This document shows, piece by piece, positions 1,234 through 13,841 of a stretch of DNA of 13,841 bases. Within the stretch, counting starts at the first letter, position 1. Each line of letters opens with the position of its first letter. The position numbers were made by a program, and so were the translations under genes. Below the pieces are notes generated by a model. It saw only the letters and a list, made by a program, of their open reading frames with translations, was not told the origin of the DNA and did not search any database. Origin of the DNA: Desulfobacteraceae bacterium (lineage in GTDB: Bacteria; Desulfobacterota; Desulfobacteria; Desulfobacterales; Desulfobacteraceae); contig JAFLJU010000125.1 in assembly GCA_022712835.1 (NCBI GenBank), forward strand, positions 1 through 13,841, given 5' to 3'.

Positions 1234-1254
1234 TATAGATGGATTCTATCTATA
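1234..1254 (-). repeat. Small intercistronic inverted repeat overlapping the typA stop
   Basis: TATAGAT at 1234-1240 and ATCTATA at 1248-1254 form a perfect 7-bp dyad with a 7-base loop. It overlaps the typA TAG stop (1250-1252) and lies just upstream of the A-run and G-run that carry the ribosome-binding region of the proline dehydrogenase gene. It is not followed by a U-run on the minus strand, so it is not a terminator. It could be a weak intercistronic RNA structure, or chance. Confidence 0.4.
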
Positions 1255-3103
1255 GGTTCGCTTTTTCCTGCTTTTTTAATTTCCCCGCCACCAAATGACG
1301 TTTTCCTGCAGGTAAAATGGTTTTCCGAATACGAACGAACTTAGGTGTCACCTCGACCATTTCATCATCCCGGATAAAATGGATGGCCTTTTCCAAAGTC
1401 ATCTCCCTTATGGGGGAACACACCGCATTCTCATCCTTGCCAGAGGCCCGCATATTGGTCAGTTTCTTTTCCTTGCAGGCGTTAACGTCAATATCCGATT
1501 GCCGGTTATGCTCGCCCACCACCATGCCCTCATAGACTGCAGTACCCGGAATAATAAACAATTGACCTCTTGGTTCCAGGTTGAACAGGCCATAAGCCAC
1601 CCCTTTTCCCTGGCGGTCGGCCACAATGGAACCTGTGAATCGAATGGGAAACTCCCCGCGAAAGGGTTCATACCCGGACAGGAAAGAGTTCATTATACCC
1701 GTTCCCCTGGTGTCGGTCATAAACTCATCCGGGTAGCCGATCAAAGAACGAGAGGGGATTGAAAACTCAATCCTGACCCGGCCTTTGCCGTTGTTGACCA
1801 AGTTGACCATTTTACCCTTTCGAATGGAAAGTTTTTCCGTGACAACCCCCATAAAATCCTCGCCACAATCCACGAACAGATGCTCAATGGGTTCCAGCCG
1901 GACCCCATCCTGTTCCTTGTAGATAACCCGGGGGCGCCCCACGCAGAGTTCAAACCCTTCCCTTCGCATGGTTTCAATGAGGATGGCCAGCTGAAGCTCT
2001 CCTCTACCCTTGACCACAAAACTTTCATCCGTGGTGCTTTCTTCCACCTCAATGGCCACATTCAACAAAGTTTCCTTGAGCAACCGTTCCCGGATTTTTC
2101 GGGACTGGACATATTTGCCATCCTGGCCAGCAAAGGGAGAGGTGTTGATGGAAAAGCGCATGAAGACCGTGGGCTCATCCACGGTAATTCGAGGAAGCGC
2201 TACCGGGGCTTCCCGGGTACAGATGGTATCCCCAATTTTTACATCCTCAATGCCGGACAAGACCACGATATCCCCCACCTGGGCCTCATCCACGGGCACA
2301 AGAGCAGGCCCGTCATAGGACTGGAGCTTAGAAACCTTTAATGCTTTTTGCTTATTCTCTTCACCAATGCAGACCAAACTTTTATGAGATGTAACGGATC
2401 CGTTAAAAATTTTGCCGATGGCCAGACGGCCCAGATAATCGGAATATCCAAGATCCGACACCAGCATCTGGAAAGGAGCCTCAGGATCATAGGAAGGCGG
2501 GGGCATCTCATCGACAATCAGGTCAAACAAAACCGTAAGGTCGTTGACATCATCCTCCAGTTCCCGCTTAACAATTCCGTCCCGGCCAATGGCATAAAGA
2601 TAGGTAAAATCAAGCTGCTCTTCCGTGGCATTCAAATCAATAAACAGATCATAAACCATGTCCAGAACCTCATCGACTCTGGCATCCTTACGATCAATCT
2701 TATTGATGATCACCATTACCGGCAGATTGGACTCAAAGGTTTTTTTCAGCACAAACCGAGTCTGGGGCAACGGCCCTTCCGAGGCATCCACCAACAAAAT
2801 AGCAGAATCTGCCATGGACAACGCCCGTTCCACCTCCCCGCCAAAATCCGCATGGCCCGGGGTATCAATGATATTAATCTTTACATCCTTCCAGGTGACC
2901 GAACAGTTTTTGGCAGAAATGGTAATACCCCGCTCCCGCTCAAGGTCCATACTGTCCATGAGGCGATCATCCACTTTCTGACCATCCCTGAACTGACCGC
3001 TCTGCTTGAACATTGCATCCACAAGGGTGGTTTTCCCATGGTCAACATGGGCAATAATCGCAATGTTTCTTAATTTTTCGTTGGAACCTGTATTTTTTTT
3101 CAT
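1250..3103 (-). CDS. typA: Translational GTPase TypA/BipA
   Basis: This 617-residue protein is a ribosome-associated GTPase of the EF-G/LepA class that supports large-subunit assembly and growth under stress or cold. The GTPase motifs are complete: G1 AHVDHGKT (18-25), G2 RERGITI with Thr61, G3 DTPGHADF (80-87) and G4 NKID (134-137). They are followed by the beta-barrel domain, the EF-G-like alpha/beta domain with GRGELQLAILIETMRREG, and the TypA-specific C-terminal domain ending in a basic tail. I chose ATG at 3103 because AGGAG lies just upstream and the length then matches the family. The frame stays open to an ATG at 3217, but those 38 residues resemble nothing in TypA. Transcription probably starts well upstream (about 3328). 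The gene heads a unit with proline dehydrogenase. Confidence 0.97.
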   Translation of the reverse strand: MKKNTGSNEKLRNIAIIAHVDHGKTTLVDAMFKQSGQFRDGQKVDDRLMDSMDLERERGITISAKNCSVTWKDVKINIIDTPGHADFGGEVERALSMADSAILLVDASEGPLPQTRFVLKKTFESNLPVMVIINKIDRKDARVDEVLDMVYDLFIDLNATEEQLDFTYLYAIGRDGIVKRELEDDVNDLTVLFDLIVDEMPPPSYDPEAPFQMLVSDLGYSDYLGRLAIGKIFNGSVTSHKSLVCIGEENKQKALKVSKLQSYDGPALVPVDEAQVGDIVVLSGIEDVKIGDTICTREAPVALPRITVDEPTVFMRFSINTSPFAGQDGKYVQSRKIRERLLKETLLNVAIEVEESTTDESFVVKGRGELQLAILIETMRREGFELCVGRPRVIYKEQDGVRLEPIEHLFVDCGEDFMGVVTEKLSIRKGKMVNLVNNGKGRVRIEFSIPSRSLIGYPDEFMTDTRGTGIMNSFLSGYEPFRGEFPIRFTGSIVADRQGKGVAYGLFNLEPRGQLFIIPGTAVYEGMVVGEHNRQSDIDVNACKEKKLTNMRASGKDENAVCSPIREMTLEKAIHFIRDDEMVEVTPKFVRIRKTILPAGKRHLVAGKLKKQEKANL

Positions 3104-3206
3104 ACTCTCCTGTTGCTTCTCCTTGATACTGATACTAAGGTGACGATTCAAGGGAAAGCTAAATTTTCGTTTATTTGAGCACCCGTCTGATGCCAGCCAC
3201 TCCCCC

Positions 3207-3269
3207 TGCCAGGGCACTCACCCTAGGTGGCAATGGCTTTACCGGATCTGTAAAAAAACAAATCCGGTA
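3207..3269 (-). repeat. Two hairpins in the predicted typA 5' leader
   Basis: The first hairpin pairs TGCCA (3207-3211) with TGGCA (3228-3232), with an inner GGG/CCC pairing. The second pairs TACCGGATCTGT (3240-3251) with ACAAATCCGGTA (3258-3269), 11 of 12 positions matched, around a 6-base A loop. Neither is followed by a U-run on the minus strand, so they are not simple terminators. If the predicted promoter is right they sit in the typA untranslated leader. I do not recognise a riboswitch family. Confidence 0.5.
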
Positions 3270-3657: not shown

Positions 3658-4176
3658 ATGACCATAATTATTGCTGTAACCCTTTTCCTGGCTGCCGTCA
3701 TCACCTTTAGCCTGGTCATGAAAAAATTTCGAGCGGCCGGCATGAAGATTTCTAAGCCCCCTGTGACGCCGCCCCCCCCAACAAAAACCCCCGAAGAAGA
3801 ATTCAAAGAAATCTTAACCGTATTGCTGAAATTAAACCTGATGATCCGAAAAGACATGGATTTTCCCCATGAGTTGATACTCAAGATTGAAGAGATAATT
3901 GATGAGATCAAAACAATCATCCCCCCCATGATGGAACGTTTTCCCGGGGAATCCCTGACCTATGAAATCAAAAAAATCGGCCTGTCCCATCTTTACAAAA
4001 CCGTAAAAGAATTTCTGGATCTATCCCTGGACAGCCGTGAAAACCAATTGGAAAACTTTAAAACAACCGTCCAAAGCCTCCATGATGTGACCCACCGGTC
4101 CAAAGATATCATTGAAAACAATGAAACCGCTGAATTTAAAACCATGGCCCATTTCCTTGCCGGTAAATTTTCTTAA
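3658..4176 (+). CDS. Small N-terminally anchored helical protein, possible XpaC-like TelA partner
   Basis: This 172-residue protein has one hydrophobic membrane segment (about residues 2-20) followed by a basic KK patch, a proline-rich linker (about 33-45, PPVTPPPPTKTP) and a charged, mostly helical domain (about 46-172). The last 60 residues (from HLYKTVKEFLDLS onward) look like a helical bundle. I do not firmly recognise a family. In Bacillus the TelA homologue yaaN lies beside xpaC, a membrane-anchored protein with a helical C-terminal part. The position directly before a TelA gene suggests an analogous partner, which is inference. ATG at 3658 has AAAGGAG eight bases upstream and is the first gene of the operon. 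The TelA gene follows 44 bases later. Confidence 0.8.
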   Translation: MTIIIAVTLFLAAVITFSLVMKKFRAAGMKISKPPVTPPPPTKTPEEEFKEILTVLLKLNLMIRKDMDFPHELILKIEEIIDEIKTIIPPMMERFPGESLTYEIKKIGLSHLYKTVKEFLDLSLDSRENQLENFKTTVQSLHDVTHRSKDIIENNETAEFKTMAHFLAGKFS

Positions 4177-4220
4177 AGACTTGACCCAGACCACCTATTT
4201 TTTCTCTTAAGGAGGAACCC

Positions 4221-5453
4221 ATGAACGATATGACCCAAGATCTAAAAAGTGTTGCCATCCAAGCCAAAGCCCCTGTCCTTACAGAGGTGACTGAGATTTC
4301 AGGCCAGGGCGCACTGACCCCGGTGCAATCGCCTTCCAACCTGGAACCGATCCAGCCCAAACACCTGGCGGTGGAAGACATCCAGGCCATAGAATCCGAG
4401 GCCGATGCGTTTTTGGAAAAGGTAAAAGCGGAACCGGGAGACTGGCAACTGGGCAACTTTGTTTTTTCTTTGGGCCAGGAGATCATGGATCAAACCCAGG
4501 CCCAGGTCACCCTCTATGATCGAAAAATGGGCGCGGTACTTAAAAGTGTTTCCACGGATGATTCTTCGCCTGTGGGGAAAAATATCCTGGCCATCAAAAC
4601 CGAACTGGACAAGGTCAATCCCACCGTGGTGGGAAGAAGCGAACTGCCCTTTCCCAAAAAAATGCTGGGCCTGTTCACCAAAACGGTTAACCGGCTGCCC
4701 AAGGGGGATGAAATTTTAAGGGTGATTGCCGAGCGCCGTGAAACAGTTAATTCCACCATTGACGGTATCCGAACCCACCTGCGCAATGAAGCCGACCAGG
4801 TGGCCTTTGATGCCTCGGAACTTTCCACCATCTGCGACGCCTTAAAAGAGATCCAGCCCCGTCTCCAGGAAAGAATCTACCTAGGTCAGATCATCTGGCA
4901 AAAACTTATGGCCCACATGGAAACCGTGGAAGACATTCGGATCAAGGAAGCCCTGACCACCCTGACCTCGGATCTTGCCATGGCAGTTGTGGATCTCCAG
5001 ACCATTGACAACTCCAATCTCCAGACCCGGTTCGGCGGAGAGATGATGGTCCGAAACTCCCATTTAGTTCGACGTCTGGTCCAAAGAACAGACATGATTT
5101 TGTCCACGGCCGTGAAAAATGCCCTGGCCGTCCGGGTGGCAGCAGAACAACAGATGGAAACGCTTAAGCACCTGGACATGGTACAACAGGCAGCCGCAGA
5201 AACCATGAAGGACACGGCAAAGGTCATTGGCAATGCCGCTATCAAGGGCGCCCAGATGAGCCAGAGCATGACCGTGAATATAGCGGCCCTGGAAGAGGCC
5301 TGCAACTCCTATGAACAAGCCTTTGAAACCTATGCTCTGATTTCCAAGGAAACCATTAACATTGCCTCCCAGAGTTCCACAGCCCTGGGAAAAATGAATG
5401 AACGGTTCAGAAACAGGACCGATTCCCTGACCGCCAGGCGTCAAGACACATAA
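4221..5453 (+). CDS. telA: TelA/KlaA-family toxic anion resistance protein
   Basis: This 410-residue protein belongs to the TelA family, named for plasmid RK2 tellurite resistance. Chromosomal members are linked to tolerance of cell-envelope stress and antimicrobial peptides (for example in Listeria). The biochemical activity is unknown. About 60 N-terminal residues are low in order; the long alpha-helical core then begins. Family hallmarks are the LYDRKMGAVL region, the paired helices around LGQIIWQKLMAHMETVEDIR, the alanine-rich central helices, and the DNSNLQTRFGGEMMVRNSHL segment that precedes the C-terminal coiled-coil helices. No membrane segment or signal peptide is visible, so it is probably cytoplasmic or membrane-peripheral. 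TAAGGAGG lies five bases before ATG. No TerC, TerD or TerZ-type genes are nearby, so this is not a classical ter operon. Confidence 0.92.
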   Translation: MNDMTQDLKSVAIQAKAPVLTEVTEISGQGALTPVQSPSNLEPIQPKHLAVEDIQAIESEADAFLEKVKAEPGDWQLGNFVFSLGQEIMDQTQAQVTLYDRKMGAVLKSVSTDDSSPVGKNILAIKTELDKVNPTVVGRSELPFPKKMLGLFTKTVNRLPKGDEILRVIAERRETVNSTIDGIRTHLRNEADQVAFDASELSTICDALKEIQPRLQERIYLGQIIWQKLMAHMETVEDIRIKEALTTLTSDLAMAVVDLQTIDNSNLQTRFGGEMMVRNSHLVRRLVQRTDMILSTAVKNALAVRVAAEQQMETLKHLDMVQQAAAETMKDTAKVIGNAAIKGAQMSQSMTVNIAALEEACNSYEQAFETYALISKETINIASQSSTALGKMNERFRNRTDSLTARRQDT

Positions 5454-5469
5454 TCCAAGGAGACCTTCC

Positions 5470-6117
5470 ATGATTGATACGGCCGTTAAAAAATCATTTG
5501 ACCAGCGGTTTTCCCTCGTCCGCACCCTTGAAAAAGAGCAGTTGATTCTGGAATCAGACCAGGCAGAACTCACTATGATGGATGCGGAGAAAGGCTGCTT
5601 TTTCACGTTTTTTGGTGATACTTATTTTGTGAAAGAAAAAAACCAATACCAGGAAATGTCCGAAGATTTTACCACCCGCCAGGATTATTTCACCACAGAG
5701 CTCACCTGTCTGTGCCTGGAAACCGGGCATGTCGGCCATTTCGAATGGGAATTTGATGATGAATTAGAAGTTTCCATCACCCTGGAACGGACCAGCTTCA
5801 AACATATTAAAGATGAAGAGGGAAAATCCGTGGATGAAGACGATCTGGACCAGATTGCCGAGGACAAGGATGCCATTGTCTATGCCGGACAGAAATTCTG
5901 GTATAAAGATGACTGGGCGGCTCTTTATCTACGGAACGGCAAAGAGGAAAAGGTTTATATGTATGAATTTGAAAATGAAGTGGGCAACCTCTCTCTCACC
6001 ATTGAAGAATGGACCGGCTCGGACCGGGATGAATACAAAATATATCTTTCCAAATCTGTGACACCAGACCAGATAACCATCATGAGCAAAGGAGCCCCAG
6101 GGGATGAGCTCTCATAA
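5470..6117 (+). CDS. Acidic soluble protein of unknown function (possibly DUF4178-like)
   Basis: This 215-residue protein has no signal peptide or membrane segment, is rich in Asp and Glu, and is probably cytoplasmic. It appears to have two beta-rich halves. The first (about 40-110) carries FFTFFGDTYFV, a cysteine pair in LTCLCLETG, and an acidic strand EWEFDDELEVSITLE. The second (about 135-205) carries AGQKFWYKDDWAALYLRNGK, YMYEFENE and NLSLTIEEW. A very acidic linker joins them. The pattern reminds me of DUF4178 proteins, which occur next to DUF350 and spermidine synthase genes, but YjfK-like DUF2491 is an alternative and I cannot decide between them. AAGGAG lies seven bases before ATG, 16 bases after telA. 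The 3' end overlaps the next gene by 14 bases, so the two are translationally close. Confidence 0.82.
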   Translation: MIDTAVKKSFDQRFSLVRTLEKEQLILESDQAELTMMDAEKGCFFTFFGDTYFVKEKNQYQEMSEDFTTRQDYFTTELTCLCLETGHVGHFEWEFDDELEVSITLERTSFKHIKDEEGKSVDEDDLDQIAEDKDAIVYAGQKFWYKDDWAALYLRNGKEEKVYMYEFENEVGNLSLTIEEWTGSDRDEYKIYLSKSVTPDQITIMSKGAPGDELS

Positions 6118-7789
6118 AAAAGACAAAAACATCCACATAAAAGCCAGTCTTGGCCCCATAATGCACGCCCGAAAAACACTGACGGGCCTAGCGACGTACC
6201 TAGTGGCGAGCCTGCTCTTTCTGGGCCTTACCGGATGTGGCCAGGGGCTTCCAGATGATGTAAAACAAAAGGCCAAGGCTGTTCCCCATGCCATTGAAGC
6301 GGCCCAGGAGAATATTGAAAAAGCCCAAAAACAATTTGCAACCCTCAAAAAATCTGGAAAATTCAAACCCGTTGCAATCTATGCCCAAAGGGAAAACTGG
6401 GATCAGCTGTTTGCCAAGGCAAATCAGGAACTGACCCGGGCCCGTGACCTCAATAAAAACGAACTGGTCCCATTGGTTAAAAAAAATAACCCGGAAACAG
6501 CGGCACGGGTAGTAACCCAGACAAATCGGATCAATAAGGTCATCCAGGCAGCGGGCCAACAAGCCAAGGGCCCGACACAAAGATTTTTACGGCTCCGGGA
6601 AGCCATGGAAAACACCGATAAAATCCATTCGAAATCCGAAACCATGGGTCAAAAAATCGCAACCCAGATCCCCCATTTGGAAAACGGTCCCGTAGCAAAG
6701 GCCCGGAATACCTTCCCTGATTCTGTGGGGGCGATTGATGCACGGTTTGCCCCGTTTCTCAAAATCAGTCAGGACACAAAAACCCGTCTCCACCTCATAA
6801 AAAAAGAGTATGCAGCCTACACCGCCAATGGAAATCCTGATTTTGCCTCCTTCATCAACAATGCCGATGGGATTTTTGAGGATTTTAAAACCCTGGAACA
6901 AACAAAACCTGTATTTGAACGGGAACTTGCTCAACTTTACGAGAGTTACACAAAGGTTCTCCAGGACATGAAGGCAGATTTTTATGTCACCATAAAAAGA
7001 GAATCCTGGAACGACAACTCCGACTATTATGATCCCAGATTTGCCACCTTTCAACGAAAGGTCACCCCATCGGTATATGACAGTATAGTTGGAAATGAAC
7101 AGGAGTCGATTGCCACCTTGTCCCCGGGATTCAGCGGACTCCGCTTTTCAAACAAAATCGGGGGCACCTGGGAAAAATTAAATATTAACCCCACCGAACA
7201 ATGGCCGGCACGGAATCACAATGCGGCATCCTTCTATCTTGAAGACGTAAAAGAGGTTTATTACCACAAGTATTTAAAAGAAGAAAACGGGGAGACCTCT
7301 GAAACCGATTGGATCAAGGTAGACCCCTCCTTTTATGAACAAAACCTGGAATTTCTGGGCATGGCGATCCTGTCAAAACCCTATGGGGTCTTTGAACAGG
7401 ACCGCGTGACCCAGGCCACCCCCCCGGGGATGGCCTACGTGGGCAATGACAAATATGGGAAATGGGAAAAAGATAACAGCGGGAACAGCTTCTGGTCCTG
7501 GTACGGTAAGTATGCATTATTTTCCCATCTTTTCTTTTTCCCCCCCTCCTATTTCCACTATGGGGGCTGGAATAGCTGGAACAATGGCTATCGAAACCAA
7601 CAACCCTATTTTGGGAAAACCCAAAATGGAACCCAACGATATGGTACTCGTGGCAGCTTTGTGAAGCAATCCCCCAAATACCAGAGCAGCACTTTTTCAA
7701 AAACAGGCGGTTTTAAATCCCAGTCAGCATCGGTCAGAGGCGGAGGCGCTAAAGTTCGTGGCGGCGGCCCCAAAGCCAAGGGCAAATAA
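6104..7789 (+). CDS. Predicted lipoprotein with coiled-coil region and Gly/aromatic-rich tail
   Basis: This 561-residue protein is of unknown function. After a basic n-region, a hydrophobic stretch (about 28-43) ends in the lipobox LTGC with Cys45, so it should be lipid-anchored in the envelope. Residues about 50-215 are charged, Ala/Lys/Gln-rich and probably coiled coil. The middle (about 300-440) has beta-rich, tyrosine-rich segments such as PSVYDSIVGNE and SFYLEDVKEVYYH. A conserved-looking block (YVGNDKYGKWEKDNSGNSFW, about 445-465) follows. The tail is rich in Trp, Tyr, Asn and Gly and ends in basic RGGG repeats. I chose ATG at 6104 because AAAGGAG lies nine bases upstream; an internal ATG at 6161 would give a shorter signal peptide but has no ribosome-binding site. 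It overlaps the previous gene by 14 bases. Confidence 0.85.
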   Translation: MSSHKKDKNIHIKASLGPIMHARKTLTGLATYLVASLLFLGLTGCGQGLPDDVKQKAKAVPHAIEAAQENIEKAQKQFATLKKSGKFKPVAIYAQRENWDQLFAKANQELTRARDLNKNELVPLVKKNNPETAARVVTQTNRINKVIQAAGQQAKGPTQRFLRLREAMENTDKIHSKSETMGQKIATQIPHLENGPVAKARNTFPDSVGAIDARFAPFLKISQDTKTRLHLIKKEYAAYTANGNPDFASFINNADGIFEDFKTLEQTKPVFERELAQLYESYTKVLQDMKADFYVTIKRESWNDNSDYYDPRFATFQRKVTPSVYDSIVGNEQESIATLSPGFSGLRFSNKIGGTWEKLNINPTEQWPARNHNAASFYLEDVKEVYYHKYLKEENGETSETDWIKVDPSFYEQNLEFLGMAILSKPYGVFEQDRVTQATPPGMAYVGNDKYGKWEKDNSGNSFWSWYGKYALFSHLFFFPPSYFHYGGWNSWNNGYRNQQPYFGKTQNGTQRYGTRGSFVKQSPKYQSSTFSKTGGFKSQSASVRGGGAKVRGGGPKAKGK

Positions 7790-7806
7790 CTTTAAGGAGA
7801 TTACAC

Positions 7807-8697
7807 ATGAATATCACACCCATTCTCACAGGAATCAGCCAGGGATTTGTCTACGCCGTTACCTGCACTTTATTTATATGGTTTGTCAAACAGGTGGATG
7901 ACTGGCGAACCAAAGATTTTGATGATGACCGCCATATTGATGACGGAAATGTGGCCGTGGGGCTGCGGCGGGCAGGACTATACCTTGGCATTGCCATTGC
8001 CCTTACAGGCGCGCTTTCCGGAACCTCTGGCGGTTTTTTCCAAAATCTGATCCAGCTCATCGTGGACGGGCTTATCATCACGGGATTTCTTTTTTCATCC
8101 CGGTTTCTCAACGATTATATCATGATGGGCCACCTGAACAATGATGCTGAATGTATCAAGGAATTCACCCTGGCCGATGGCAGGAAAGTGACGGGTAACA
8201 CCGCCCTTGGCATGGTGGAAGCCAGCATGTACATTGCGACCGGGTTTATCCTCAAGGGCAGCCTCACCGGCGAAGGTGGCACCTTTTTCCAGTCCCTGGT
8301 CAGTGCCGTTCTCTTTTTTATCCTGGGCCAGATTGCCCTGCTGGCATTCGGCTTTATCTATGAATTGATCACCCCCTTTAATGTCAGACAAGAGATCAAA
8401 AAGAACAATCTGGCCGCTGGTATCGGCCTGGGCGGAATACTGATAGCCCTGGGCATCATCCTCATGGGAAGCATCTCCGGCCCCTTTACCGGATGGGCAA
8501 ACGATATTGCAGGATTTTGTATTTATACGGTCTACGGCATGGCAATGCTCTTGATTTTCAGAAGCGTTATTGATCGGATTCTGTTGCCCACCACCACCCT
8601 GGCCATAGAAATAAAAGAGGACCGGAATGTGGCTGCCCTGATCGTGGTGGAAAGTGCCATAGCTGCCGTTGCCGTGATTATTGCCTATTCCATGTAG
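7807..8697 (+). CDS. Multi-spanning membrane protein with duplicated DUF350 (YjfL-type) units
   Basis: This 296-residue inner-membrane protein has about eight hydrophobic helices. It contains four related units, each with an Asn-x-Ala motif at the start of a helix that runs into a Gly/Ser-rich end: Asn48 (GNVAVG), Asn131 (GNTALG), Asn201 (NNLAAG) and Asn274 (RNVAAL). The first three continue to ALSG, SLTG and SISG. Single DUF350 proteins such as E. coli YjfL are about 130 residues and hold two such units, so this is a fused duplication. The function is unknown; DUF350 genes often neighbour PspA-like, ATP-grasp or spermidine synthase genes. A charged loop (about 28-46) and a soluble loop (about 108-130) separate units. 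TAAGGAG lies seven bases before ATG, 17 bases after the lipoprotein gene. Confidence 0.9.
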   Translation: MNITPILTGISQGFVYAVTCTLFIWFVKQVDDWRTKDFDDDRHIDDGNVAVGLRRAGLYLGIAIALTGALSGTSGGFFQNLIQLIVDGLIITGFLFSSRFLNDYIMMGHLNNDAECIKEFTLADGRKVTGNTALGMVEASMYIATGFILKGSLTGEGGTFFQSLVSAVLFFILGQIALLAFGFIYELITPFNVRQEIKKNNLAAGIGLGGILIALGIILMGSISGPFTGWANDIAGFCIYTVYGMAMLLIFRSVIDRILLPTTTLAIEIKEDRNVAALIVVESAIAAVAVIIAYSM

Positions 8698-8715
8698 CCC
8701 AGGTGCTTAAAAACG

Positions 8716-10425
8716 ATGACCCTTAAATCCATGCCAAAAAAGCAAAACTCTTTTAATTTTGCTTCGCTGCTGCTTTGCGCTTGCATGTTTGCCAGCGGCG
8801 CCTGCGGAATTATCCTTGAGTATATCCAGGCGAGTCTTGCCTCCATGATCCTTGGCAACGCCTTTGAGCAATGGGCCATGGTCATCGGGCTCATGATGTT
8901 CTGGATGGGATTCGGCAGTCTCATCCAGGCGCAGGTTAAAAAAGCACATCTGGTCTACGCCTTTATCGGCATCGAGATTGCCCTGGCCCTGGCAGGTGGA
9001 TTTTCCCCCACCCTCACCTATTTATTCTATGGATATACCGCCCACTACAGCCTGGTGCTTTACTTTTTTGTCAGCCTCATCGGTATTCTGATCGGGCTTG
9101 AAATCCCGGTGATCATCCGGATCAATAACGATTACAGCGATGAACTGTCCACAAATCTTGGCAAGATTCTGTCCGCCGACTACATCGGCAGCCTGGTGGG
9201 ATCTTTAATTTATGTATATATTCTCCTGCGGTATACCCCCATCACCCAGGCGGCTTTTTTAACCGCTGGCATGAATTTTTCCCTGGCCCTGGTCACCTTT
9301 ATTTATTTCACAAAGAAAAAACTGATCCCCAAAAGTGTTGTCCTCTCTTTAATAATGGGGTTCACCTTGTTTGCCATCATTTACGGATACCTGAACAATC
9401 GGGACTGGCAGGTTACAATCGAACAGCCCCTCTACGATGATCCCATTGTATATAGCAAGACCAGCCAGTACCAGCACATTGTCATTACCCACTTCCCCCC
9501 CCTTGATGAAACCCGCCTCTTTTTGAATGGCAACCTCCAATTGTGCAGCACTGATGAAGCCCGATACCACGAGTCCCTGGTCCACCCGGTCATGTCCCTG
9601 GCCAAGGTAAAATCACGTGTCCTCATTCTGGGAGGGGGAGACGGTTGCGCCCTTCGGGAAGTATTGAAATACAATGGGGTAAAAGAGGTGATGCTGGTGG
9701 ACCTGGACCCGGCCATGACACAATTGGCTGCCACCCACCCCCTTTTAACCCGGATCAACCAGGATGCATTTAAAGATGCCAGAAACACGATATCCACCCT
9801 CAAAGGCGTCACCCCGGGCCGGACCCGACAACTTTACATGGCAACCACAACAAACCGCCAGCAAAATCAGACGCTCCCTTCTCAGACTACCACCCGGCAC
9901 CTGGCCGATGTAAAGGTCATGAATATTGATGCTGACAAGTTTTTAGAACAAATCCCAGGAGGATGGAACGTGATCATCGTGGACATGCCCGATCCTTCCA
10001 CCCCCGAGCTTACCAAGCTCTATTCCCGGGAATTTTATCAAAAGGTCAAACAGCATTTGTCCCAGAACGGGCTCATGGTAGTCCAGTCCACCTCCCCCTA
10101 CCTGGCGAAGGAAAGCTTTTTATGCATCGGCAGGACTCTTACTGCTGCAGGTTTTTCCATCTTGCCCTTCCATGAAAATGTTCCCAGCTTCGGCGACTGG
10201 GGGTGGTACCTGGCCTGGCACCCCGCCATAAACAGAACCAAACTCATGAACCAGATAAACACCCTTAAATTTCCAGCAGACACCCGATTTTTAACCCCGG
10301 AACTGTTCAGAAGCCAATTGGTATTCGGCAAGGGACTCCTTGAAACAAAAAGAGAGGAGATCAACACCATTTTGTACCCGGTTTTACTCACCATTTATAA
10401 CCATGAGTCCTGGTTGCTGGAATAA
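8716..10425 (+). CDS. Membrane-fused spermidine synthase-like aminopropyltransferase
   Basis: This 569-residue protein has about seven membrane helices (residues about 13-226), including a GLEIPVIIRI segment and SADYIGSLVGSLIY. They are followed by a SpeE-like domain (about 235-520). SpeE enzymes transfer the aminopropyl group of decarboxylated SAM to a polyamine. Key motifs are present: YQHIV, NGNLQLCSTDEARYHESLVH (with the substrate-binding Gln and Tyr-His-Glu), the SAM-site GGGDG at 306-310, VDLDP, and DMPDP with the likely catalytic Asp423. A roughly 40-residue Thr/Gln-rich insertion (about 357-398) interrupts the usual stretch before NIDADKFL. No SpeD (SAM decarboxylase) is in the window. 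The substrate may be a membrane-associated amine, but this is inference. The start at 8716 lacks a strong Shine-Dalgarno sequence (AGGTG ten bases upstream), so translation may be coupled to the previous gene. Confidence 0.92.
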   Translation: MTLKSMPKKQNSFNFASLLLCACMFASGACGIILEYIQASLASMILGNAFEQWAMVIGLMMFWMGFGSLIQAQVKKAHLVYAFIGIEIALALAGGFSPTLTYLFYGYTAHYSLVLYFFVSLIGILIGLEIPVIIRINNDYSDELSTNLGKILSADYIGSLVGSLIYVYILLRYTPITQAAFLTAGMNFSLALVTFIYFTKKKLIPKSVVLSLIMGFTLFAIIYGYLNNRDWQVTIEQPLYDDPIVYSKTSQYQHIVITHFPPLDETRLFLNGNLQLCSTDEARYHESLVHPVMSLAKVKSRVLILGGGDGCALREVLKYNGVKEVMLVDLDPAMTQLAATHPLLTRINQDAFKDARNTISTLKGVTPGRTRQLYMATTTNRQQNQTLPSQTTTRHLADVKVMNIDADKFLEQIPGGWNVIIVDMPDPSTPELTKLYSREFYQKVKQHLSQNGLMVVQSTSPYLAKESFLCIGRTLTAAGFSILPFHENVPSFGDWGWYLAWHPAINRTKLMNQINTLKFPADTRFLTPELFRSQLVFGKGLLETKREEINTILYPVLLTIYNHESWLLE

Positions 10426-10444
10426 TTGAAAGGAGTAATCTGGC

Positions 10445-13400
10445 GTGAAACAGAAACAAAAACCAAACCTGTCTGAAGATTTTATGGAGACCACCTGCTC
10501 GGTTACCGGGGTTACGATATACAGGAGTCATCAGTGGAGCAATATTTACCTGACCCAGGATTATTCTGTTACCTTTCACCTCATCAATGAAAACATTTTA
10601 AGTAGCTATCCAAAGGGAATCATCAGTTATGAGGGAACCCTGGCGCTGTTCAAAAACTATGACCTGTTTTTAAAAACCCTGGGCCTTGCCCATCAGCCGT
10701 TTATCGAGATTTCCGATTATAGCCAGATCACCAATATCCCCTCCCAAAGAACCCGGGTGAAAGTATTGGCACTATTGTACGAAAAAATGAAACAGGATCT
10801 CTTGAAGGGGCATTTTGTCTACAATGTGCCCAAGCATATCCGATGGATGTACAATATCGGGGCTCGTCTGAAAAGACCCGGCATCCCCATGGAAGCCGTG
10901 GACAACTATACCAGGGCCATTCAAAGGGCACTGGAAATTGGAAGGAGCCGATTAACCCCCTCCTCCCTTCTCAAGCGATTTAGGCACAAATTTTCCTTCA
11001 GACATAAATCCCAAATCCTTGCCGAAGAGATTCTGGATTATATAGGTGCCATCAACTGGGATGAACAAGGAAAACCCATTGAGAATATTCCGGATTCCCA
11101 CCCTTTTAAAGTTGTTTTTGATGCCCTTTCCGTTCTCAAAACTGATATTGACCAGACCTTTAACGAACGTAAAAACATTGAAAAAAAATACAAAAGCCTG
11201 TTTAATCATATTCCGAATCCGGTTCTGGTCTTTGATCAAAAAGACCTCCACATCATGGACTGCAACCAGGCATTTTTAAGTATCTACGGATATACAAAAG
11301 ATGAACTGAGGCAAATGACGCCCCATGACCTGCACCTGGAAGAAGACCTGGAAAAGTTCAATGAGAACATTTTCGAGAAGAGCAACAAACTTGCCCATCG
11401 GTATACCCACATCACCAAAACAGGAAAATCCATTGATGTGGAAATGAGAACCGAAGAGACCGAATACCAGGGAAGAAGGTCCTGGATCAGCAATATCCGG
11501 GATATCACCGACAGCACCAAGATGGAAAATGAGCTCAAAAAACACCGGGATAGCCTGGGTAGCCTGGTGGAACAAAGGACCCGAGCCCTTGAACAGGAAA
11601 TTGCCGAACGCAAACTGACGGAAACAAAATTCAGGACTCTGTTTGAAGCCAGCTCCGATGCAGTTGTACTTCTTGATAAAGCCGTTTTTTTTGATTGCAA
11701 CCAGGCGGCCTTGATCCTATTCGGGTGCCGGAATAAAGAAGAGTTCTGTTCCCTTCATCTCAAGGATTTTTCCCCAGAAACCCAGGAAAACGGCCAAAAT
11801 TCACTTGATTTAGCCAAAGGAAAATTAGAAACCGCGTACGTGGGTGGCAAAGTTAACTTTGAATATATTTTTACCAACGCCAAAACAAAAAACGACTTTT
11901 TCGCAGATGTTTTGATTTCCCCCATGGAGCTGAATGGAAAAACGGTTCTTCAGGCTGTTATTCGAGATATTACCCAGCGAAAACATGCAGAAGAAAACTT
12001 AAGGCACAGCGAGGAGAAATACCGGGGCATCATAGAAAACATGCAGGATGTTTTCTACCGGACAGATATGGACCAGAATCTTACCATGATAAGCCCCTCT
12101 GGCTTACGGCTTATGGGATATTCAAAAGATACCATGATGTTGAATCAAAACATCGGATCCCTGTTCTATGGAAACACCCCCCAGTATACCCGATTTATTG
12201 AGACCTTGACCCAAAAGGGCCAGGTCAGCAATTTTGAACTGGAACTTTTGTCCAAGGACGGCAACCACATCCCCATTATTTCCAGCAGTAAATTTTACAC
12301 CGATGCCAATGGGACCCCCCTGGGTATTGAAGGCACCATTACCAATATCCAGGAACGCAAGGAAGCTGAAGAACAGCTCAAACAGGCCAAATTACAGGCA
12401 GAATCCGCCACCAGAACAAAAAGCGAGTTTCTGGCCAATATGAGCCATGAAATCCGCACCCCCATGAACGGCATCATGGGCATGGTTGAGCTGATCCTGG
12501 AAACCTCTCTTACCCCTGGCCAAAAAAGACTTGCCGCCACCATCAACAAAGAAGCCGGTTCACTCCTGGGAATCATCAACTCCATCCTGGATTTTTCAAA
12601 AATTGAAGCCGGAAAAATGGAGTTGGAGCAAACGGCATTCAATCTCAGGATTCTGTTCGAAGACCTGTCCACTACCTTTGACATCTCGGCCCGGAAAAAG
12701 GGATTGAAATTGATCTCATGTTTACCCCGGCAGACCCCGGAACATTTGGTGGGTGATCCAGGACGTCTTCGCCAGATTCTCATGAACCTTATCGGTAATG
12801 CCATTAAATTTACCCTCATGGGGGAAGTCTCTATTTGGGTAGAAACCATCCAACAGACCAAGGAGCAGATCACCCTAAAATTTTGTGTAAAAGACACGGG
12901 GATCGGTATTCCAGAGGAAAAGCAGGACACGATATTTGAAAGTTTTGCCCAGGCAGACGGATCAACCACCCGGAAATATGGGGGCACTGGTCTTGGCACG
13001 ACCATTTCAAAACAATTGGTCCAAATGATGGACGGAGATATCGGTTTGGAAAGCAAGCCGCTGGTGGGCTCCACCTTCTGGTTTACCGCTCGTTTCCAAC
13101 CGGACCCGACCCAGAAAAGCCTGGGTTATATCCCAGAAGTAAACAACCCGGAAAAGACAAGCCTTCTCAACATCAATCCATCAGACAATCGGGAAAAAAT
13201 ACAGATTTTACTGGTTGAAGACTATCCCACCAACCAGCAATTGGCGATGAAACACTTGACCAGCCAAGGATACCAGGTCACCCTGGCGGTCAACGGTAAG
13301 GAAGCGATTAGCCTGTTCAAAAAACAACGATTTCACCTTGTCCTAATGGACATTCAAATGCCGATAATGGATGGGTACGAAGCCACCCGCCTCATTCGGG

Positions 13401-13841
13401 AGTATGAAAAAAAATCGACCGGGGCATTTGGCCATAACACGGGACTCAAACACAGGCACCGGATCCCAAGGACGCCCATTATTGCAATGACAGCCCATGC
13501 CATAAAAGGATACCGGGAAAAATGTTTGGCAGCAGGTCTGGATGATTTTATGACCAAACCCCTGAAGAAAAAAGAGTTTCTCCATCGGGTCGACTCCCAT
13601 ATTGCCGGAAAGAATGAACCGAATTTTGCCCGGAAATCAGGGGAGACACCGTCCGATAAGGAAAAAGCCCGGCCCACCTTCCCGGGGGAGGCCCCCATTC
13701 ATCTTGATGAAATGCTGGCGGAATTCGACAATGACAAGCCTTTTTTCCTTGAAGTTCTGGAAGAATTCATAAAAAGCGTTGAACAGAAGATTCCAGACAT
13801 GATAGCGGCGGAAAAGAAAAAGCAGTTTCAAGTTCTTGAGG
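10445..13841 (+). CDS. Multi-PAS hybrid sensor histidine kinase with receiver and HPt domains (3' partial)
   Basis: The frame is open from GTG to the window end (1132 complete codons), so the C-terminus is missing. GTG is preceded by AAAGGAG nine bases upstream, 19 bases after the aminopropyltransferase gene. Domain order: an N-terminal domain of unclear family (about 15-165), PAS (about 250-355), a coiled-coil linker, PAS (about 396-507), PAS (about 525-632), the HisKA dimerisation domain with SHEIRTPMNG and His668, an ATPase domain (N box Asn785, DTGIGIP with Asp817, GGTGLG near 846), a receiver (phosphoacceptor Asp969, Lys1038), and the start of an HPt domain (from about 1085). The window ends just before the expected HPt histidine. 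No membrane helix or signal peptide is seen, so it should be a cytosolic phosphorelay sensor. Its signal is unknown. It is probably part of the operon. Confidence 0.94.
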   Translation, partial: MKQKQKPNLSEDFMETTCSVTGVTIYRSHQWSNIYLTQDYSVTFHLINENILSSYPKGIISYEGTLALFKNYDLFLKTLGLAHQPFIEISDYSQITNIPSQRTRVKVLALLYEKMKQDLLKGHFVYNVPKHIRWMYNIGARLKRPGIPMEAVDNYTRAIQRALEIGRSRLTPSSLLKRFRHKFSFRHKSQILAEEILDYIGAINWDEQGKPIENIPDSHPFKVVFDALSVLKTDIDQTFNERKNIEKKYKSLFNHIPNPVLVFDQKDLHIMDCNQAFLSIYGYTKDELRQMTPHDLHLEEDLEKFNENIFEKSNKLAHRYTHITKTGKSIDVEMRTEETEYQGRRSWISNIRDITDSTKMENELKKHRDSLGSLVEQRTRALEQEIAERKLTETKFRTLFEASSDAVVLLDKAVFFDCNQAALILFGCRNKEEFCSLHLKDFSPETQENGQNSLDLAKGKLETAYVGGKVNFEYIFTNAKTKNDFFADVLISPMELNGKTVLQAVIRDITQRKHAEENLRHSEEKYRGIIENMQDVFYRTDMDQNLTMISPSGLRLMGYSKDTMMLNQNIGSLFYGNTPQYTRFIETLTQKGQVSNFELELLSKDGNHIPIISSSKFYTDANGTPLGIEGTITNIQERKEAEEQLKQAKLQAESATRTKSEFLANMSHEIRTPMNGIMGMVELILETSLTPGQKRLAATINKEAGSLLGIINSILDFSKIEAGKMELEQTAFNLRILFEDLSTTFDISARKKGLKLISCLPRQTPEHLVGDPGRLRQILMNLIGNAIKFTLMGEVSIWVETIQQTKEQITLKFCVKDTGIGIPEEKQDTIFESFAQADGSTTRKYGGTGLGTTISKQLVQMMDGDIGLESKPLVGSTFWFTARFQPDPTQKSLGYIPEVNNPEKTSLLNINPSDNREKIQILLVEDYPTNQQLAMKHLTSQGYQVTLAVNGKEAISLFKKQRFHLVLMDIQMPIMDGYEATRLIREYEKKSTGAFGHNTGLKHRHRIPRTPIIAMTAHAIKGYREKCLAAGLDDFMTKPLKKKEFLHRVDSHIAGKNEPNFARKSGETPSDKEKARPTFPGEAPIHLDEMLAEFDNDKPFFLEVLEEFIKSVEQKIPDMIAAEKKKQFQVLE

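What the first reader, a model, noticed from the sequence alone, without database searches (positions are those of the whole stretch)
3658..13841. A seven-gene envelope-type operon combining TelA, DUF350, a lipoprotein, a membrane aminopropyltransferase and a hybrid kinase
The seven genes are on one strand with gaps of 44 bases or fewer and one 14-base overlap. The proteins span every compartment: cytoplasm (TelA, acidic protein, kinase), membrane (anchored helical protein, DUF350, SpeE fusion) and envelope (lipoprotein). Known relatives are the Bacillus xpaC-yaaN pair and the enterobacterial yjf locus with DUF350; here they appear merged, without PspA, without an ATP-grasp ligase and without SAM decarboxylase. 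I infer a membrane-stress or polyamine-modification system with a dedicated sensor.
Basis: partly seen in the sequence, partly recalled or inferred. Interest (0 to 1): 0.72.

Follow-up and report, generated by a model that had tools for sequence, protein, structure and literature searches.

The report
TelA-type envelope and polyamine operon
A tightly conserved six-gene cluster of marine sulfate-reducing bacteria joins a membrane-bound polyamine-type enzyme to TelA, a poorly understood "tellurite resistance" protein, where related clusters carry the membrane-repair protein PspA; this hints at what TelA does, but no function was tested.

Summary
The genes are as described, but the conserved unit is six genes, not seven: P1 (membrane-anchored helical protein), TelA, DUF4178, lipoprotein, two-domain DUF350, 7TM-SpeE. 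Among 48 loci chosen because they carry this TelA (window included), 39 show all six in order; the other 9 are cut by contig ends with the remaining genes in order; none is out of order. The hybrid kinase directly follows only in the window; relatives lie near 2 of 47 other loci.

The closest known kind is the CesT/Tir-PspA operon with DUF4178, lipoprotein, 8TM DUF350 and 7TM-SpeE of Ravi et al. 2024 (PMC11237479, passages). Here P1-TelA stands in place of CesT/Tir-PspA: my PspA, CesT and XpaC profiles hit 0 of 48 loci. In 10 such genomes PspA lies elsewhere and TelA occurs once, in the operon.

The same gene set, with SAM decarboxylase inside, is on an Alteromonas mediterranea plasmid, though its TelA is very divergent. 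Searches of the held papers found no description of a TelA version.

Most likely an envelope-stress module in which P1-TelA is a sub-membrane scaffold for DUF350, lipoprotein and a membrane aminopropyltransferase. Anatomy is shown; function is inferred.

The parts
3658..4176 (+). P1: 172 aa, one N-terminal TM helix and a five-helix cytoplasmic bundle; no Pfam, NCBIfam, PADLOC or PHROGs family
   Evidence: (AlphaFold2 pLDDT 85); present in 47 of 48 loci, the other cut by its contig end
4221..5453 (+). TelA, divergent subfamily (PF05816), 410 aa, all-helical, no TM segment found
   Evidence: E 7.9e-21; 76-94% identity to most of the matches in 50 of 86 genomes of the family; 14-22% identity to 11 other TelAs of the phylum
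5470..6117 (+). DUF4178 protein, 215 aa, acidic (50 D+E, 23 K+R)
   Evidence: E 5.3e-10
6104..7789 (+). Lipoprotein, 561 aa, lipobox LTGC with Cys45; overlaps DUF4178 by 14 bases
   Evidence: window-type profile hits the lipoproteins of four PspA-type operons at E 1e-29 to 4e-23
7807..8697 (+). DUF350, two domains (8TM form), 296 aa
   Evidence: E 1.3e-48, two stretches
8716..10425 (+). Membrane-fused aminopropyltransferase (7TM-SpeE), 569 aa; GGGDG, DLDP, DMPDP, QYQ and YHE motifs kept
10445..13840 (+). Cytoplasmic hybrid histidine kinase (PAS, HisKA, HATPase_c, REC), cut by the window end; a neighbour, not part of the conserved unit
   Evidence: relatives near only 2 of 47 other loci

Best explanation
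The conserved unit is a six-gene operon: P1, TelA, DUF4178, lipoprotein, DUF350, SpeE (gene content and order shown; one transcript inferred from spacing). It is a version of the CesT/PspA-DUF350-aminopropyltransferase operon in which P1-TelA occupies the place of PspA and its chaperone (gene content shown; replacement in evolution inferred). Inferred mechanism: P1 anchors TelA under the inner membrane as a scaffold; the lipoprotein senses or acts on the periplasmic side; DUF350 passes a signal or substrate through the membrane; SpeE moves aminopropyl groups from decarboxylated SAM (made by an enzyme encoded elsewhere, or within the operon in Alteromonas) to a polyamine or membrane-bound acceptor and so changes membrane charge or stability under stress; DUF4178 is an intracellular regulator of unknown action.
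For: Order kept in 48 of 48 loci as far as contigs reach, 20 of them fetched after the pattern was set. Same partner genes in PspA-CesT operons. PspA, CesT and XpaC profiles hit 0 of 48 TelA-type loci; of 29 sampled genomes with two-domain DUF350, 12 have PspA on the stretch, 3 have P1, none both. TelA occurs once in 10 of 10 genomes, at the operon. SpeE motifs kept. SAM decarboxylase in 10 of 10 genomes and inside the Alteromonas operon. TelA was described, also by inference, as forming sub-membrane structures (PMC7824862, passage).
Against: No functional or structural test. TelA model poor (pLDDT 55); no PDB match at E 0.001 or better for P1 or TelA. Two P1-type operons lack a linked TelA (L061, L081), so TelA is dispensable there. 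The Alteromonas TelA is not recognised by the window-TelA profile (hhalign 0.9%), although both match PF05816. 13 of the 29 genomes show neither PspA nor P1 on the stretch fetched.
Confidence: 0.5

Rival explanations
1. TelA is a toxic-ion or antimicrobial tolerance factor that shares only regulation with a polyamine and membrane module; it forms no complex with DUF350 or SpeE and does not stand in for PspA.
For: TelA stands without these genes in 17 other loci examined (11, 6). P1-type operons exist without linked TelA (L061, L081). Listeria XpaC-TelA is induced by a bacteriocin and its disruption raised nisin and tellurite sensitivity (PMC12791056, passages).
Against: TelA lies between P1 and DUF4178 in every one of 48 loci long enough to show it and again in Alteromonas.
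Confidence: 0.3
2. SpeE no longer makes aminopropyl products but transfers another group from SAM, so the operon is a SAM-dependent membrane modification system unrelated to polyamines.
For: The acceptor is unknown, and Pfam shows only weak sub-threshold methyltransferase matches.
Against: Aminopropyltransferase motifs are kept and the equivalog cut-off is passed; SAM decarboxylase sits beside SpeE in Alteromonas.
Confidence: 0.1
3. One reading: all seven genes are one system with the hybrid kinase as its sensor.
For: 19-base gap in the window; related kinases on the same strand near L004 and L006.
Against: 45 of 47 other loci show none, 33 of the 47 with at least 1.2 kb after SpeE; no TM segment in the kinase.
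Confidence: 0.07

Closest known systems
CesT/Tir-PspA operon with DUF4178, lipoprotein, 8TM DUF350 and 7TM spermine/spermidine-synthase fusion (Ravi et al. 2024, PMC11237479, second group; passages)
   Same: DUF4178, lipoprotein, two-domain DUF350 and 7TM-SpeE, all homologous to copies in such operons of the same phylum
   Different: P1 and TelA stand where CesT/Tir and PspA stand; neither is found in 48 loci
XpaC-TelA (YaaN) pair of Bacillus and Listeria
   Same: A TelA-family protein beside a smaller membrane-anchored helical protein
   Different: P1 does not match XpaC PF10112 and profile comparison is not significant; the pair examined in this phylum has no DUF350 or SpeE nearby
Dyad-less DUF350 variants with DUF2617 (mentioned by Ravi et al., passage)
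   Same: The P1-only relatives L061 and L081 carry DUF2617 (PF10936) within an otherwise similar operon
   Different: The window has TelA and no DUF2617
Ter stress system (PMC7824862, passage)
   Same: TelA as an inferred sub-membrane component
   Different: No TerB, TerC, TerD or TerF among the window proteins scanned

Membership tests
CesT/Tir-PspA-DUF350-SpeE operon (Ravi second group) | PspA | tested here: not met
   PspA profiles hit 0 of 48 loci at E 1e-4; no PF04012 in the window proteins
CesT/Tir-PspA-DUF350-SpeE operon (Ravi second group) | CesT/Tir chaperone-like protein | tested here: not met
   Own CesT profile (confirmed as PF22550 for its members) hits 0 of 48 loci
CesT/Tir-PspA-DUF350-SpeE operon (Ravi second group) | DUF4178 protein | tested here: met
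   PF13785 E 5.3e-10
CesT/Tir-PspA-DUF350-SpeE operon (Ravi second group) | Lipoprotein of the same family | tested here: met
   Window-type profile to four PspA-type lipoproteins E 1e-29 to 4e-23; lipobox. Identity with the paper's Ctha_1186 domain was not tested
CesT/Tir-PspA-DUF350-SpeE operon (Ravi second group) | 8TM DUF350 | tested here: met
   PF03994 in two stretches
CesT/Tir-PspA-DUF350-SpeE operon (Ravi second group) | 7TM-spermidine synthase fusion | tested here: met
   PRK03612 580 bits, cut-off 472; 6 hydrophobic segments over my threshold
XpaC-TelA pair | TelA | tested here: met
   PF05816 E 7.9e-21, cut-off passed
XpaC-TelA pair | XpaC (PF10112) | tested here: inconclusive
   No Pfam match; hhalign P1 to XpaC probability 1-3%; folds could not be compared
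yjf-type operon (PspA, DUF2491, 4TM DUF350, DUF1190, ATP-grasp ligase) | ATP-grasp ligase, DUF2491, DUF1190 | tested here: not met
   None among the nine window proteins scanned; the window end lies inside the kinase, so genes beyond it were not seen
Ter system | TerC, TerD or TerF beside TelA | tested here: not met
   None among the nine window proteins scanned

The most novel reading that the evidence does not exclude
TelA, held at the membrane by P1, is a functional equivalent of PspA: an exchangeable sub-membrane scaffold serving one DUF350 / lipoprotein / membrane-aminopropyltransferase machine. The exchange is seen in Desulfobacteraceae and in a gammaproteobacterial plasmid, and would give TelA, known for tellurite and nisin tolerance, its first concrete partners.
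Probability: 0.3. Interest if true: 0.75.

Novelty: new variant of a known kind. Interest (0 to 1): 0.5.

Why it matters
TelA is linked to tellurite and nisin tolerance without a known mechanism (PMC12791056, passages). Its fixed place in an operon whose relatives carry PspA gives a testable idea of its role and a natural experiment: the same membrane and polyamine-type genes with two different cytoplasmic partners. The Alteromonas copy, with SAM decarboxylase inside, ties the system to decarboxylated-SAM chemistry in a named, sequenced strain.

Tried and rejected

Limits: the 48 loci were found by their TelA, so the count says that this TelA is always in the operon, not that the operon always has it; L061 and L081 show P1-type operons without it. 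Several profiles were built from loci that they then label. No genome could be searched by me outside the one phylum.
Full report
What is there. The window carries seven + strand ORFs from 3658 to its end, with gaps of 44, 16, -14, 17, 18 and 19 bases. Upstream on the other strand lie TypA (1250-3217) and a proline dehydrogenase (293-1216). The seven proteins are P1 (172 aa, no family), TelA, DUF4178, a lipoprotein of 561 aa, a two-domain DUF350, a membrane-fused spermidine synthase (PRK03612, 580 bits, cut-off 472) and a hybrid kinase with PAS, HisKA, HATPase_c and REC domains. In the listed homologues of TelA and P1 (the best 120 of 278 and of 248), names where given are mostly Desulfobacteraceae or its genera, or wider groups, with one labelled Bacteroidetes. 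I therefore take the window to be from a Desulfobacteraceae bacterium; no whole genome is held for it.

Is the linkage real? A scan of genome contigs with the window TelA gave 27 loci, all with the same order as far as contigs reach. A search of the family of one of these genomes found a TelA of 75% identity or more in 50 of 86 genomes by my count of the rows, one of them a 66-residue piece and one in two pieces. I fetched 20 of these 50, none sharing a contig length with the first 27; all 20 keep the order, one cut by its contig end. Over 48 loci with the window, 39 have all six genes in order on one strand, 9 are cut by contig ends with the rest in order, none is out of order. DUF4178 to lipoprotein is 2 or -14 bases in 20 of 25 loci by my ORF starts. 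All 48 were chosen by their TelA.

What does not belong. The kinase stands 19 bases after SpeE in the window. Relatives of its N-terminal 240 residues occur only in L004 (764 nt) and L006 (3052 nt); 33 of 47 loci have at least 1.2 kb after SpeE and 18 at least 4 kb. A K+ channel with a TrkA/RCK-type domain lies downstream on the same strand in 12 of 47 loci, 33 to 4345 nt away; Pfam confirms it in two of them and in two PspA-type loci, and related frames lie in other DUF350 loci. It is a loose but recurrent companion.

What kind of system. Ravi et al. 2024 (PMC11237479; [quoted passage not shown] In the same phylum L053, L055, L056, L057 and L069 carry this set by my profiles, which were partly built from four of them; CesT_Tir_1 is confirmed by Pfam in L052, L055, L056, L069 and L083. 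The window-type lipoprotein profile, built without them, hits four PspA-type lipoproteins at E 1e-29 to 4e-23. So four genes are shared and P1-TelA stands where the dyad would be. PspA, CesT and XpaC profiles hit 0 of 48 TelA-type loci. Of 29 genomes, in a sample of 395, whose DUF350 I judged two-domain from the rows, 12 have PspA on the fetched stretch, 3 have P1 (one of these with TelA), none has both, 1 has PspA on another contig and 13 show neither. PspA is not missing from TelA-type cells: 10 of 10 genomes carry it, beside a gene that looks like pspF in four seen (by eye and recall). In five of six PspA-type genomes the operon PspA is the only one. TelA occurs once in each of 10 TelA-type genomes, at the operon; one further genome, G427, also has a second, divergent TelA.

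Is TelA usually elsewhere? In the sample of 395, 17 genomes match PF05816 and 12 pass the cut-off. One is the operon TelA of G001; around the other 11 none of the P1, DUF4178, lipoprotein, DUF350, SpeE, PspA or CesT profiles hits. Nor do they hit around 6 divergent TelAs of the same family. XpaC lies next to TelA or one gene away in 4 of the 11, and 4 of 5 XpaC over the cut-off in the sample are these. P1 is not shown to be XpaC.

A second group of bacteria. tblastn of the window SpeE in plasmids (44 records) led to Alteromonas mediterranea pAMCP48-600: SpeE, SpeD, a 169-aa protein, toxic anion resistance protein, DUF4178, a 510-aa protein and DUF350 on one strand. Pfam confirms Spermine_synth, AdoMet_dc, TelA (1.1e-25), DUF4178 and DUF350. 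By hhalign the 169-aa protein matches P1 (63-86% by profile used; XpaC 2%, PspA and CesT 1% or less) and the 510-aa protein the lipoprotein (99.6%); but its TelA does not match the window-TelA profile (0.9%). Of the SpeE hits in plasmids I looked at six records; the other five (L168-L172) showed no TelA by my profile. SAM decarboxylase within this operon supports decarboxylated SAM as the donor; it is present on other contigs in 10 of 10 TelA-type genomes and in 29 of 33 genomes searched.

History. In a SpeE tree of 37 rows the 17 TelA-type rows form one group (100/100), the PspA-CesT rows another (100/100), and the two P1-only rows sit beside the TelA group at weak support (88/71). A concatenated lipoprotein-DUF350-SpeE tree of 17 loci separates PspA types (100/100) from all P1 types, Alteromonas included, whose place among them is weak (60/69). 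The P1-only operons L061 and L081 carry DUF2617, a family Ravi et al. mention in a variant without the dyad. Whether TelA was recruited once or twice is open.

How it may work. Shown: gene content, order, families, aminopropyltransferase motifs and lipobox, and a P1 model of one TM helix and a five-helix bundle. Inferred: P1 holds TelA at the inner membrane; TelA is a scaffold; SpeE modifies a polyamine or a membrane acceptor; the whole counters envelope stress, as Ravi et al. propose for the PspA version. Listeria XpaC-TelA rises under a bacteriocin together with Psp genes, and a TelA disruption raised nisin and tellurite sensitivity (PMC12791056, passages). The structure predictions neither support nor exclude a PspA-like TelA.

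In print. Searches list no paper that I could see describing a TelA version; I judged most from titles and abstract starts. TelA, tellur- and XpaC do not occur in the main text of PMC11237479. Its supplements and most subscription journals were out of reach, so earlier notice cannot be excluded.

Noticed in passing
L025:6828-7853, L024:10971-11993, L175:3332-4375, L190:15159-16217 and 8 more loci: A K+ channel with a TrkA/RCK-type domain lies on the same strand after SpeE in 12 of 47 TelA-type loci, 33-4345 nt away; related channels occur in PspA-type loci.
   Followed up: partly
window 10445-11170: The N-terminal 242 residues of the hybrid kinase match no Pfam family but have relatives near L004 and L006; in L006 the gene follows the K+ channel by 13 bases.
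   Followed up: partly
L061:9059-9649 and L081:7025-7699: P1-type operons without linked TelA carry DUF2617 between DUF4178 and the lipoprotein.
   Followed up: partly
L103, L059 and genomes G185, G396, G195: DUF350 matches interrupted by TGA; in L103 and L059 a short DUF350-like frame lies by a SpeE frame. A half-length DUF350 seems likelier than recoding; a 69-aa DUF350 is annotated beside SpeE in a Novosphingobium plasmid.
   Followed up: no
L168 (Novosphingobium sp. ES2-1 plasmid p1): Another dyad-less version: SPFH protein, two DUF4178 proteins, short DUF350, SpeE, FAD-dependent oxidoreductase, SpeD.
   Followed up: no
window 1250-3217 and 293-1216: TypA, then proline dehydrogenase, lie divergently upstream; TypA is also upstream of the operon in many of the 27 first loci.
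   Followed up: no
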